The position numbers were made by a program, and so were the translations under genes. From the NCBI GenBank assembly GCA_029946125.1, contig JAQSDX010000035.1:1-36932 (forward strand): a stretch of 36,932 nt of DNA, read 5' to 3'. Below, piece after piece: positions 129 to 4,045 of the stretch. This stretch comes from Candidatus Methylobacter titanis (GTDB lineage Bacteria > Pseudomonadota > Gammaproteobacteria > Methylococcales > Methylomonadaceae). Below the pieces are notes generated by a model. That model was given only the letters and a program-made list of their open reading frames with translations, made no database searches and had not been told where the DNA came from. How positions within the stretch are numbered: the first letter of the stretch is position 1; each line of letters starts with the position of its first letter.

Positions 129-1154
129 TTAAACGCCTGCATATTTTTGCTTATCCCGGCTTGCCCAATAATCAATCGCCAATTGTTGCGCCTGTTCCTG
201 CGTCTCAGCTTTGCCCAACAACTTAAGCGCTATTGCAGCCGTGCCAATAATCGAGGCTTCGGCGAACTCATCTTCAAGCTTTCCCTGCCAGATTAACGCC
301 AGTTGCTCCGGATCAAGAATTTCGGGTTTGACGTGACGGCGTGGAAATAAAGCAGGCCAGTTTTCGTCGGATAATTCGCCGTTGTGCACGCTTTGCACCA
401 GGCATTCCATATCGGGATTGCGTTCGGTCTCGCCGCCTTCGCCTTTTAATACCGCCATATGCGGCTGGTTTAACAGGGCTGCGGCTTGTTGATGTACCGG
501 ACGGTAACCGGGATGGAAGATGCCCTGAATGCTGTGTTCCGCATTAAACGGGTTTAACAAGCGCACCAGGGTGTGTACCGGTGAACGCAAACCCAGTATT
601 GGACGCAACTCGATAATTTCATGCAATTTGGGGCAGAAATATTCCAGCGATAAATAACTGAAATACTGTTGTTCAAGTTGCCGTTTGGCCTCCTTAATAG
701 AGTTTGCGCATTTAAGACCCAAATAACCCAGCATATTTTCAGTGTACAGTCTGTCGGCCGAATGGCCGCTGGCGCCATGCATAAAAACAGTAATGCCGTT
801 TTCAGCCAGCAGCAAAGCCGATAGCAAGAACCAGGGCAAATGACGACGTTTCCCGGCATAAGATGACCAGTCCAGGTCGACTTTTACGGCATTATCGGCA
901 ATATCGAATGATTCTCTGGCGGCCAGTGCGAAACCGGCCAATTCTTCCGGAGTTTCTTCCTTGACACGCATCAGCATTAGGAATGCGCCCAGCTGAACCG
1001 GCAGCACCTGATCGGTCAGAATCATGTTCATGGCGTGATAGGCTTCATCCTGAGTTAATGGCCGTGAGCCTTTTTTGCCTTTGCCTAAGATGCGGATAAT
1101 TTCTGCAAACGGATGCTCAGGGTAGGGCGTTTGCTCGTGATGAGTGAATGTCAT
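129..1154 (-). CDS. YbiB/TrpD2-like glycosyltransferase-family protein
   Basis: The 341-residue protein has the two-domain layout of the anthranilate phosphoribosyltransferase (TrpD) superfamily: an N-terminal helical part (about residues 15-90, with GKGKKGSRPLTQDEA and a run resembling LxMRVKEETPEELAGF) and a C-terminal alpha/beta part. The glycine-rich catalytic GTGGD loop of true TrpD is absent; the equivalent stretch reads FMHGASGHSADRLYTENMLG. This is typical of the YbiB/TrpD2 branch, whose characterised member binds nucleic acid rather than making tryptophan. Its start overlaps the stop of cyoE by 4 bases (ATGA), so the two are probably co-transcribed. The exact role is unknown and no trp genes are nearby. 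Confidence 0.75.
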   Translation of the reverse strand: MTFTHHEQTPYPEHPFAEIIRILGKGKKGSRPLTQDEAYHAMNMILTDQVLPVQLGAFLMLMRVKEETPEELAGFALAARESFDIADNAVKVDLDWSSYAGKRRHLPWFLLSALLLAENGITVFMHGASGHSADRLYTENMLGYLGLKCANSIKEAKRQLEQQYFSYLSLEYFCPKLHEIIELRPILGLRSPVHTLVRLLNPFNAEHSIQGIFHPGYRPVHQQAAALLNQPHMAVLKGEGGETERNPDMECLVQSVHNGELSDENWPALFPRRHVKPEILDPEQLALIWQGKLEDEFAEASIIGTAAIALKLLGKAETQEQAQQLAIDYWASRDKQKYAGV

Positions 1155-2038
1155 AAGGTAAACTTAAAATAATGATCGACCAACAAGGCGATAAATACGC
1201 CGGTTAGGTACATCAGTGAATAAAAGAAGGTTTGCATCGCCGTTTTATCGTCTTTTCGACGCATCATCAAAATGGCATAATAAATAAAACCAAGCCCTAA
1301 TGGTACCACCGCAAACAAATAAATCAGGCCGCTCATGCCGGTCAGATAGGGCAGTAGGGTAACAATTAACAGCAACAGGGAATAAAGCAGAACATGCAGT
1401 CGGGTGTATTCTACCCCGTGCGTGACCGGCAACATCGGGATGCCGACTTTGGCGAATTCTTTACGCTTGGCAATAGATAACGGCCAGAAATGCGGCGGTG
1501 TCCACACAAAAATAATCAAAAACAACAGCATTGCGTAAGGATGCACCTCGCCGGTCATCGCGCACCAACCGAGCAGCGGCGGCGTGGCTCCGAAAGCGCC
1601 TGCAATAACGATATTTTGCGGGGTCATCCTTTTAAGGTAGACCGTATAGATAATGGCGTAACCCAGTGCCGATAAAAACGTCAGTAATGCGGTCAATACA
1701 TTGACCATGAATATCAGCAATACCATCGAGATAATACCCAGCGTTAAGGCAAAAACGATGACATCGGTAGAGCTTAATTCGCCTTTAGGCAAAGGGCGGT
1801 GTTTATTGCGATCCATCAGCGCATCGGCGTCACGGTCAATATAATGATTAATCGCGGCGGCGGACGCTGCGGCCAGCGCAATGCCGATGCTGCTGTAAAT
1901 AAACAGGCCGATAGGCGGTATTCCAGGAACGGCTAATAACATCCCCGCCATAGCCGTAAAAACGATCAGGGCAACCACTTTGGGTTTGCATAACTCAAGA
2001 TAACTTTGCCAGGAAGGCCTAGGTGATTCGCTAGTCAT
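1151..2038 (-). CDS. cyoE: Protoheme IX farnesyltransferase (heme O synthase)
   Basis: The 295-residue integral membrane UbiA-family prenyltransferase converts heme B to heme O using farnesyl diphosphate, for heme-copper terminal oxidases. The Asp-rich substrate motif NHYIDRDADALMDRNKHRPL is present near residues 65-85, and the second conserved loop (YLKRMTPQNIVIAGAFGATP) lies near residues 133-155. About eight or nine hydrophobic segments can be seen and the length is normal for CyoE/CtaB. The oxidase structural genes are not adjacent, so in this genome cyoE is either separate or at the end of a locus beyond the window; here it heads a two-gene unit with the YbiB-like gene. The Shine-Dalgarno sequence is weak (GGA about 12 bases upstream). 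Confidence 0.93.
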   Translation of the reverse strand: MTSESPRPSWQSYLELCKPKVVALIVFTAMAGMLLAVPGIPPIGLFIYSSIGIALAAASAAAINHYIDRDADALMDRNKHRPLPKGELSSTDVIVFALTLGIISMVLLIFMVNVLTALLTFLSALGYAIIYTVYLKRMTPQNIVIAGAFGATPPLLGWCAMTGEVHPYAMLLFLIIFVWTPPHFWPLSIAKRKEFAKVGIPMLPVTHGVEYTRLHVLLYSLLLLIVTLLPYLTGMSGLIYLFAVVPLGLGFIYYAILMMRRKDDKTAMQTFFYSLMYLTGVFIALLVDHYFKFTL

Positions 2039-2155
2039 TATGTAGTAGATTCCAACTTTTAGATTAGGGTACTGCTCCCATGGAAATTATGGGAATAGTG
2101 TTGTAGATGCTCCATTCGGTATTACCGGAGCGGCGCATAGGAAAGATGACCGTTT

Positions 2156-2161
2156 ATTATA
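2156..2161 (-). promoter_or_regulatory. Possible -10 element upstream of cyoE
   Basis: A perfect TATAAT reads on the minus strand in the A/T-rich stretch 118 bases upstream of the cyoE start. No good -35 hexamer sits 16-18 bases before it, so the assignment is tentative. Confidence 0.25.
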
Positions 2162-2262
2162 ATAGAATACAGTGAACTATTGATTATTGAAATAGCCCAA
2201 ATTGTCCCTAGGAAAATTGAGGTTTGCACAACATCAACGGGTCATTTGCGCTCATATAATCT

Positions 2263-2412
2263 TCATCGGTAAATGGTATCAACCAAATGCTTAAACCAAC
2301 TCGGTCTGAAAATCACAATATAAACAGCAATAAGACTGGTTGTTGGGATAGGGCTAATGCCTATTATCGCCAAAGCAATCAATACCAGAGCTGTGATTAT
2401 TCTTGTCTTCAT
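2263..2412 (-). CDS. 49-residue membrane miniprotein, second of a tandem pair
   Basis: This short open frame encodes 49 residues: a charged start (MKTR), one hydrophobic segment (about residues 5-19), the motif ISPIPTTSLI, a second hydrophobic stretch, and a C-terminal tail RPSWFKHLVDTIYR. It aligns without gaps to the upstream miniprotein, sharing R4, PIPT, SLI, Y31, V33-I34-F35-R36-P37, WFK, LVD and a final YR-stop. Its ATG overlaps the upstream stop by 4 bases (ATGA), and a GAGG Shine-Dalgarno lies inside the end of the upstream gene, so translation is probably coupled. I do not recognise the family. Two short transmembrane or hairpin segments with a basic, aromatic cytoplasmic tail are likely. 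The retained alignment between two copies is good evidence that both are real genes. Confidence 0.72.
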   Translation of the reverse strand: MKTRIITALVLIALAIIGISPIPTTSLIAVYIVIFRPSWFKHLVDTIYR

Positions 2413-2558
2413 CGATAAACCTCATCCACAAGACGTTTAAACCATGGTGGTCTGAAAATAACGGCATAAAGGCAAATAAGGCTGACAGTCGGAATCGGTC
2501 CAAGATCAGTAACCAGAATAAAAAGCAACACCAACAATGTCAAAATTCTTATTTTCAT
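2409..2558 (-). CDS. 49-residue membrane miniprotein, first of a tandem pair
   Basis: The 49-residue frame starts at an ATG preceded by a good AAGAGG Shine-Dalgarno 8 bases upstream. Its layout is MKIR, a hydrophobic run (ILTLLVLLFILV), the motif DLGPIPTVSLI, another hydrophobic run, and the tail RPPWFKRLVDEVYR. About 27 of 49 residues are identical to the downstream copy, while many codons differ, which points to an old duplication kept under protein-level selection. No named family is recognised. The pair lies alone between cyoE and recA and could be a small membrane regulator or a toxin-like peptide; the sequence does not decide between these. Confidence 0.75.
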   Translation of the reverse strand: MKIRILTLLVLLFILVTDLGPIPTVSLICLYAVIFRPPWFKRLVDEVYR

Positions 2559-3004
2559 CAAATAAACCTCTTAATTTCTAGCCTTTTTTGATCACAAAAC
2601 TCAGTCTGTCGGCTATTTTCCGTATCCTATGGATGCAGTGTAGAGTCAGGATTGCAGTGTCACAAGTTCTTGCAATCATACCAGTCGTGCTCGACGATAT
2701 AAAAATCAATGCGAGTAATGGGCTGATAAAAAGGCCGTATGGCGGATCGAAACCATAAGGTTGATACCGAAATTTGGTGATGGAACGGTGGTTGGCAAGG
2801 CCGAATTCACCCGCCTATTGAAATAGGAGAAGGATGAGCATAAATAGTATGTTCATCTACAGAGCCTTTTTCACTTTCCATCCGAACACTTTTCAGCAAA
2901 TCAACACTATCCGAAGCCCTGTCGGTATGTGATAATAATTGACTTGATTTTGGCGATATTTCTTTCTAACCGACATAGCCGCAGGGCGTAAAGGGCACTA
3001 CATA
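2559..3004. other. Intergenic region between the miniprotein pair and recA
   Basis: This 446-base stretch separates the divergent miniprotein unit and recA. It holds the recA promoter region (below) and an inverted repeat TGTCGGT (2920-2926) / ACCGACA (2969-2975). No gammaproteobacterial LexA box (CTGT-N8-ACAG) is visible. Two short open stretches (ending near 2826 and 2932) were considered and not called as genes. Confidence 0.5.
2928..2936 (+). promoter_or_regulatory. Possible extended -10 promoter of recA
   Basis: TGTGATAAT reads as an extended -10 (TGn plus GATAAT, one mismatch to TATAAT) 69 bases before the recA start. There is no convincing -35, as is often seen with extended -10 promoters. 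A TTGACT at 2939-2944 is an alternative -35 but has no good -10 behind it. Confidence 0.3.
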
Positions 3005-4045
3005 ATGGATGAGAACAAAAAGAAAGCACTAGGCGCGGCGTTGATGCAGATAGAAAAGCAATTCGGCAAGGGCTCGGTGATGCGCATGGGCGATGTGGCG
3101 GCTTCGCGTGACATTGATGTGGTTTCTACCGGTTCTTTAGGTTTGGATATTGCTTTGGGCTGCGGCGGTTTGCCTCGCGGTCGTGTGGTTGAAATCTATG
3201 GCCCTGAATCATCCGGTAAAACCACGTTGACGCTGCAAGTGATCGCCGAAATGCAAAAACTAGGCGGCACGGCGGCATTTGTTGATGCTGAGCATGCTTT
3301 AGATCCCAGTTATGCCGAAAAAATCGGCGTTAATGTCGACGACTTGCTGGTTTCCCAGCCGGATACCGGCGAGCAGGCCCTGGAAATTACCGACATGCTG
3401 GTGCGTTCCGGTGCGGTTGATGTGGTCGTGATTGATTCGGTTGCGGCGTTAACGCCTAAAGCCGAGATTGAGGGCGATATGGGCGATTCCCATATGGGTT
3501 TGCAGGCGAGGTTGATGTCTCAGGCTTTGCGCAAGTTGACCGGTAACATCAAGCGTTCCAATACCCTGGTTATTTTTATTAATCAGATCAGAATGAAAAT
3601 CGGCGTGATGTTCGGCAGTCCTGAAACCACCACCGGCGGTAATGCGTTGAAATTTTACGCCTCGGTGCGTTTGGATATTCGACGTATCGGTTCGATTAAA
3701 AAAGGCGATGAAATTATCGGTAATGAAACCCGGGTAAAAGTCGTTAAAAATAAAGTCGCGCCGCCTTTTAGACAGGCTGAGTTTGAGATTTTATACGGAG
3801 AAGGTATTTCCTTTTTGGGCGAAATAGTGGATCTGGGCGTAACTTACGGCTTTATCCAGAAAGCCGGTTCCTGGTACAGTTATGGTGATGAAAAAATCGG
3901 TCAGGGCAAGGATAATGTCAAAGCTTTCTTAAGAGAACATCCTGAAAAAGCCAAAGAAATTGAAGCCAAAATAAGAGCCGAGGCTTTTGCTAAGAAAGTG
4001 GCGCCTCTGATTGACTCGCCTATGGTTGTTGACGGGGAAGAGTAA
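3005..4045 (+). CDS. recA: Recombinase RecA
   Basis: RecA polymerises on single-stranded DNA, pairs it with homologous duplex using ATP, and triggers LexA self-cleavage. The 346-residue protein has the N-terminal polymerisation helix, the Walker A loop GPESSGKTT at residues 66-74, a Walker B block ([12 protein letters not shown]), the DNA-binding loop L1/L2 regions ([18 protein letters not shown] and the segment starting [22 protein letters not shown]) and an acidic C-terminus. Length and order are normal. The Shine-Dalgarno is AAGGG, about 9 bases upstream. recX follows after 6 bases, the usual pairing. No LexA operator was seen upstream, which is unusual for the class but could be a divergent box. 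Confidence 0.99.

What the first reader, a model, noticed from the sequence alone, without database searches (positions are those of the whole stretch)
2263..2558. Tandem translationally coupled 49-residue paralogous miniproteins
Two minus-strand frames of exactly 49 residues overlap by ATGA, each with a GAGG-type ribosome site. They align end to end with about 27 identities, including PIPT, SLI, VIFRP, WFK, LVD and the terminal YR. Codons differ while residues are kept, so this is an old duplication under protein selection. I know no family name for them.
Basis: partly seen in the sequence, partly recalled or inferred. Interest (0 to 1): 0.75.

Follow-up and report, generated by a model that had tools for sequence, protein, structure and literature searches.

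The report
Paired membrane-hairpin miniproteins of methane-eating bacteria
Two overlapping 49-residue genes encode conserved, probably membrane-embedded miniproteins of a so far unnamed family found mainly in methane-oxidising bacteria, where a similar two-unit arrangement is often joined into one protein; what they do is unknown.

Summary
In detail: two 49-codon minus-strand frames (2409-2558, 2263-2412) overlap by ATGA and share 29/49 residues (E 8e-21). The overlap is kept in seven genomes including this one. dN/dS is at most 0.35 in 34 of 40 defined orthologue comparisons and 0.22-0.41 between copies. No Pfam, NCBIfam or PDB sequence family fits.

They belong to an unnamed family of about 50-residue proteins: a predicted helical hairpin (GPxP turn) plus an amphipathic tail (RPxWF). 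It occurs in 163/201 genomes of the window's family and 29/38 of a sister family, rarely elsewhere. Two units fused in one frame occur in 17 of 39 member-bearing genomes examined and 13 of 38. In 33/35 distinct pairs, and 12/13 further loci, one unit has Asp and the other Gly/Ser/His at position 18, but few origins are independent. Here the pair is inserted between recA and cyoE; seven relatives lack it there.

Best reading: a two-part membrane-hairpin module; its function is inferred. Of 20 member-less family genomes tested (of 38), 16 have pmoA, so it is dispensable for methane oxidation.

The parts
2409..2558 (-). M1, first 49-residue frame (acidic type, Asp at position 18); alternative TTG start at 2561
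2263..2412 (-). M2, second 49-residue frame (neutral type, Gly at position 18)
2409..2412 (-). ATGA stop/start overlap of M1 and M2, kept in all eight aligned rows (seven genomes)
2567..2572 (-). AAGAGG, likely ribosome site of M1 (differs in some relatives)
   Evidence: read
2420..2423 (-). GAGG, possible ribosome site of M2 inside the M1 frame (GAGA or GAAG in several relatives)
   Evidence: read
2196..2890 (.). approximate extent of the segment that holds the pair and has no clear counterpart between recA and cyoE in seven genomes of the genus
   Evidence: alignment; edges approximate
1151..2038 (-). cyoE-like (haem O synthase) gene, downstream neighbour; its 5' flank is conserved without the pair (named by recognition, no family search run)
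3005..4045 (+). recA, divergent upstream neighbour (named by recognition, no family search run)

Best explanation
M1 and M2 are two different subunits of one small inner-membrane module. Each folds as a hydrophobic helical hairpin with both ends in the cytoplasm (Arg at position 4, Arg-Pro at 36-37), turning at Gly-Pro-x-Pro and ending in an amphipathic foot (RPxWFKxLVDxIY) that lies along the inner face of the membrane. One hairpin carries Asp at its turn and the other Gly. They are made together through the overlapping stop and start, and elsewhere in the order two such units are joined in a single chain. I think they assemble with each other and act on the bilayer itself, packing, stabilising or bending membrane, rather than as an enzyme. 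Shown: genes, conservation, selection, tandem and fused forms. Predicted: helices. Inferred: topology, pairing, coupling and function.
For: Helices at residues 2-18, 24-35 and 38-48, mean pLDDT 85.5, pTM 0.46. Family profile of 199 distinct aligned units: Arg/Lys at position 4 in 87% and at 36 in 96%; positions 7-34 almost uncharged apart from 18 (57% Asp/Glu) and 26 (7%); hydrophobic moment of the last helix 0.66 (M1) and 0.56 (M2). ATGA overlap in all eight aligned rows. Fused two-unit frames in 17 of 39 member-bearing genomes of the window's family that I chose for good assembly (the 40th genome there, G339, is of the sister family and has none) and in 13 of 38 of the sister family. Asp in one unit and Gly, Ser or His in the other in 33 of 35 distinct pairs readable in both units (its printed 34 of 36 counts a broken copy with a gap) and 12 of 13 further loci. 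No neighbour cluster reaches all 26 subgroups; the widest, a lumped one, reaches 10. One to eight matched stretches per genome in 40 genomes, fragments included.
Against: Nothing here shows expression, location or binding. The hairpin rests on one AlphaFold job (five models, 70.3-85.5 mean pLDDT, best kept) on a 37-row alignment; Foldseek found no PDB match; a second job, on the fused form, failed and could not be repeated. The acidic/neutral pairing rests on about six independent arrangements by my count, five mixed, which chance would give about one time in ten (my estimate); exceptions are D-D (L183, L269) and E-D (L190). Units without a tandem partner are common: 140 of 211 distinct units, and 7 of 40 genomes hold just one. 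Sixteen of 20 member-less family genomes carry pmoA, so the module is dispensable.
Confidence: 0.35

Rival explanations
1. They are accessory micro-subunits that dock on larger membrane enzymes or transporters, each paralogue serving its own partner (in the manner of KdpF, CydX or AcrZ, recalled).
For: Size and make-up fit. Some paralogues sit in conserved settings: in 8 of the 9 rows printed (of 13 units in the cluster) a gamma-glutamyl cyclotransferase-like gene follows on the same strand within 21 bp, one overlapping by 19, in subgroups 5, 9, 10 and 20; a GreB-like gene (by eye) precedes 8 units of three subgroups by 15-22 bp.
Against: No constant partner gene: settings differ by paralogue, and in the window the pair is an insertion between recA and cyoE, which are neighbours without it in seven genomes.
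Confidence: 0.3
2. They shape the stacked internal membranes of methanotrophs, as hairpin plus amphipathic-helix proteins shape the eukaryotic ER.
For: Hairpin and foot; concentration in Methylococcales; two-unit fused forms.
Against: Sixteen of 20 member-less family genomes have pmoA, and none of five genomes with distant relatives outside the order has it. No curvature data.
Confidence: 0.15
3. They are small hydrophobic toxins of a type I toxin-antitoxin kind.
For: Short, hydrophobic, duplicated, lineage-restricted.
Against: Overlapping frames, fused two-unit forms, purifying selection on both copies; no Rfam match at E up to 1 in 1900-3100; M2 has no match in the plasmid or phage records.
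Confidence: 0.07
4. They are membrane signalling or sensing peptides for two-component systems.
For: A gene that I read as a sensor kinase follows the member on the same strand at 106-226 bp in L108, L017 and L021, and seven loci share that gene cluster.
Against: The 110-residue part of that gene that I tested has no Pfam match at E up to 0.1; the kinase-like cluster is lumped by similarity; the window pair has no such neighbour.
Confidence: 0.08

Closest known systems
PMP3 / UPF0057 (YqaE) stress proteolipids (recalled)
   Same: About 50 residues, two hydrophobic segments, several paralogues per genome (recalled for PMP3)
   Different: No Pfam match to that family at E up to 0.1 for any of 37 members; the GPxP turn and RPxWF foot are not, as I recall, features of it
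REEP / reticulon hairpin proteins (recalled; a REEP1-4 paper, PMC11455953, was seen only as a search listing with the start of its abstract)
   Same: Works-like comparison only: membrane hairpins with an amphipathic helix
   Different: Eukaryotic and larger; no sequence or fold match to any solved structure found here
Small subunits such as KdpF, CydX, AcrZ (recalled)
   Same: Tiny hydrophobic inner-membrane proteins
   Different: Those are tied to one partner; this family has many paralogues in different settings
Type I toxins such as Hok, Ldr, Ibs (recalled)
   Same: Small, hydrophobic, sometimes in tandem
   Different: No known antitoxin RNA matched, overlapping frames, fused forms

Membership tests
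Any Pfam or NCBIfam family | Score above the curated cut-off | tested here: not met
   M1 and M2: best hits PsbM 9.2 bits (cut-off 24) and lpg1689 13 bits (cut-off 150); 37 members of A1 against Pfam: one hit, TctB, E 0.091; three fused forms against Pfam: best E 0.019, 14.9 bits (cut-off 27); two fused and four single forms against NCBIfam: best E 0.07
PMP3 / UPF0057 stress proteolipids | Match to the family profile | tested here: not met
   No such match among 37 members at E up to 0.1
Type I toxin-antitoxin | Cis-encoded antitoxin RNA | tested here: inconclusive
   No Rfam family at E up to 1 in 1900-3100; an undescribed RNA is not excluded
Type I toxin-antitoxin | Growth arrest on overexpression | not testable with these tools
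   needs experiment
REEP / reticulon-like shaping protein | Hairpin plus amphipathic helix | tested here: inconclusive
   Predicted helices and moments fit; Foldseek against PDB gave no match
REEP / reticulon-like shaping protein | Bends or tubulates membranes | not testable with these tools
   needs experiment
Phage or plasmid small proteins | Relatives in phage or plasmid records | tested here: not met
   M2 by tblastn at E up to 0.01: no match in 72,556 plasmid and 50,697 phage records; M1 was not searched there. PHROGs: three families, each matched by one of 37 members, best E 0.0029

The most novel reading that the evidence does not exclude
An unrecognised family of bacterial membrane hairpins, centred on Methylococcales, acts as obligate acidic/neutral heterodimers, present both as a translationally coupled split pair and as a fused double hairpin, and shapes or stabilises the membranes of methane-oxidising cells in the way hairpin proteins shape the ER.
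Probability: 0.12. Interest if true: 0.8.

Novelty: new variant of a known kind. Interest (0 to 1): 0.47.

Why it matters
A conserved, often multi-copy family present in most sampled genomes of two methanotroph families matches no Pfam or NCBIfam model and would be passed over as short hypothetical frames. Natural split and fused versions of a two-unit arrangement give a direct handle on whether the two hairpins assemble, and the proteins are small enough to test fully. If the membrane role holds, it would open a route into how methane oxidisers manage their dense internal membranes.

Tried and rejected
Rejected as homology: PsbM, lpg1689, TctB, PaaA-like, TRK, CotS and a nascent-chain PDB entry, all weak and, where a cut-off exists, below it. 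Two class-level hits (G225, G373) match only about 20 residues, on the strand opposite a 455-residue frame, and were dropped. A shared upstream motif: 167 non-redundant upstream stretches against 877 controls; the top-ranked word, CTCGACA, is in 6 of 167 against 1 of 877, the best of very many words tried, and I do not call it a motif. Neighbour enrichment: no partner common to all subgroups; the widest cluster is lumped and of kinase and regulator type by eye. Promoter and terminator scans were not above the shuffles (2 against a mean of 2.9; 0 against 1.0). The 11-base inverted repeat at the recA and cyoE starts is not the mark of an insertion: pair-bearing G012 lacks the cyoE-side copy, as do all seven pair-free genomes, and the flank aligns through it. 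A link to methane oxidation was tested and not supported. Genome-level co-occurrence of acidic and neutral types (30 of 32 genomes with two or more readable units) is only somewhat above what the residue frequencies would give (about 25 by my rough estimate), and it includes the tandem pairs, so I do not lean on it. One search read several loci on the wrong strand; one search replaced it. Literature: six searches gave 0, 0, 3, 19 (10 listed), 1 and 29 (8 listed) papers; none of the titles or abstract openings shown names such a family, but no paper was opened, and most subscription papers are not held.

Full report
What is there. Window 2558..2409 and 2412..2263, minus strand, hold two 49-codon frames that overlap in ATGA. 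Their products match end to end at 29 of 49 residues, E 8e-21. The window lies in a 3.5 Mb, 146-contig genome. The closest named relatives of the pair are in Methylobacter metagenome genomes. The neighbours, named by recognition, are recA and cyoE.

Conservation and selection. Eight rows were aligned, two of them copies of one genome. Between the Methylobacter rows and the others, conservation starts near the ribosome site of M1 and ends near the M2 stop. NG86 dN/dS: of 42 orthologue comparisons 2 are undefined; the other 40 run from 0.09 to 0.55, 34 at or below 0.35, and the 6 higher ones are close relatives within the genus. Copies within a genome give 0.22-0.41 in six of seven genomes, the seventh undefined, with dS 0.97-1.50, so these are rough.

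A large unnamed family. With M1 as query, 22 of 23 genus genomes match; with M2, 163 of 201 genomes of the family and 27 of 29 genera. Profile searches give 29 of 38 genomes in the sister family; 10 of 369 across the class, of which three are Methylococcales (G000, G032, G339), five carry distant relatives and two are rejected partial matches; and 1 of 398 in the phylum sample, the window's own genome. The named-genome scan confirmed 145 stretches and kept the best 80; those with informative names are methanotrophs, others bear only names such as Gammaproteobacteria bacterium or uncultured proteobacterium. No Pfam, NCBIfam or PDB sequence family fits. Of the 38 family genomes without a match, the 20 that the output listed, plus one genome of a third family, were searched again with the profile: best E 0.108, nothing credible. 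Sixteen of those 20 have pmoA (PF02461), two of them in pieces, while none of the five distant class relatives has it. Most of these genomes are drafts, so some absences may be gaps. The family is accessory and not tied to methane oxidation itself.

Anatomy. The best of five AlphaFold models of M1 on a 37-row alignment shows helices 2-18, 24-35 and 38-48 (pLDDT 85.5, pTM 0.46; the other four 70.3-75.9); Foldseek found no PDB match. Across 199 distinct units position 4 is Arg/Lys in 87% and 36 in 96%; P21, P37, W39, F40 and Y48 stand at 96-100%; positions 7-34 are almost uncharged apart from 18 (57% acidic) and 26 (7%). Position 18 is D 30, E 26, G 21, S 14, H 6 percent. Positive charge at both ends argues for a hairpin with both ends inside, by the positive-inside rule (inference).

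Pairs and fusions. I chose 40 genomes from those with a match, for good assembly: 39 of the window's family and G339 of the sister family. Seventeen carry two units in one open frame, all 17 of the window's family; five more (G032, G048, G049, G137, G149) carry adjacent units in different or broken frames (sequences). In the sister family 13 of 38 genomes carry two units in one frame. The 20 aligned fused proteins run from 106 residues (cut by a contig end) to 137; one outlier of 170 residues (L190) was left out of that alignment. Among all fetched loci, 36 distinct same-strand pairs lie within 600 bases; 35 have a readable residue 18 in both units and 33 of these combine D with G, S or H; the exceptions are D-D and E-D. 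The script's own line says 34 of 36 because it counted a broken copy with a gap. In the sister family, fetched after the pattern was seen, 12 of 13 loci are G-D and one is D-D; two of the 12 have identical units. The window order is D then G; the common fused order is G then D. A FastTree of 204 units places the fused halves in clades apart from the window pair, and a second adjacent pair (G152, G187) near it with its own D unit, at modest support. I count about six independent arrangements, five of them mixed, which is suggestive only.

Origin in this genome. Of 22 genus genomes with a cyoE match, seven have recA beside it with 285-459 bases between (cyoE start codon included) and no pair; four have the pair between (G000, G011 and G012, 969-1,097 bases, and G006, where recA was seen); in the other eleven recA was not within the stretch fetched, and no M1 or M2 match was there either. 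Both flanks align across pair-bearing and pair-free genomes (G006 was not in that alignment). So the pair was inserted in one subclade, by transfer or relocation. The four pair-bearing genomes show no other member, whereas 16 others have a sequence-checked copy with E at position 18 and G001 a probable one that was not fetched; G009 has other members and G005 none. That looks like replacement, but it is one event.

Function. Contexts vary by paralogue. The most consistent is a group in which the unit lies within 21 bases of a gamma-glutamyl cyclotransferase-like gene on the same strand (8 of 9 rows printed, of 13 units; one example matches PF06094 at E 8e-11). No context unites the family. I therefore favour a direct effect on the membrane by a two-part hairpin module, at 0.35, with accessory subunits of larger complexes close behind at 0.3. 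The corrected counts did not change these odds.

Noticed in passing
L212, L225, L068, L223, L128, L229, L235, L214: Paralogues of several subgroups sit within 21 bp before (one overlapping by 19) a gamma-glutamyl cyclotransferase-like gene on the same strand, with a GreB-like gene (by eye) upstream in three subgroups: a conserved small operon.
   Followed up: partly
L035:977-1647: A DUF308 (HdeD-like) frame and a family member overlap by four bases, near genes that look like NfeD and universal stress proteins by eye.
   Followed up: partly
L163:2710-3155 (G032) and L186 (G149): Two fused-type loci look disrupted: units in different frames in one, a cut first unit with stops in the other.
   Followed up: no
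L032:2-861 (G137), upstream of the pair: Frames upstream of the pair look like remains of an IS66-type transposase (by eye).
   Followed up: no
L290, L295, L298: In three genus genomes the gene upstream of cyoE looks like a type IV coupling (VirD4/TraG-like) protein (by eye), so recA is not the neighbour there.
   Followed up: no
L177, L178, L179, L185: The fused two-unit gene is convergent with a KdpC-like gene (by eye) in four loci, 77 to about 1,300 bp away.
   Followed up: no
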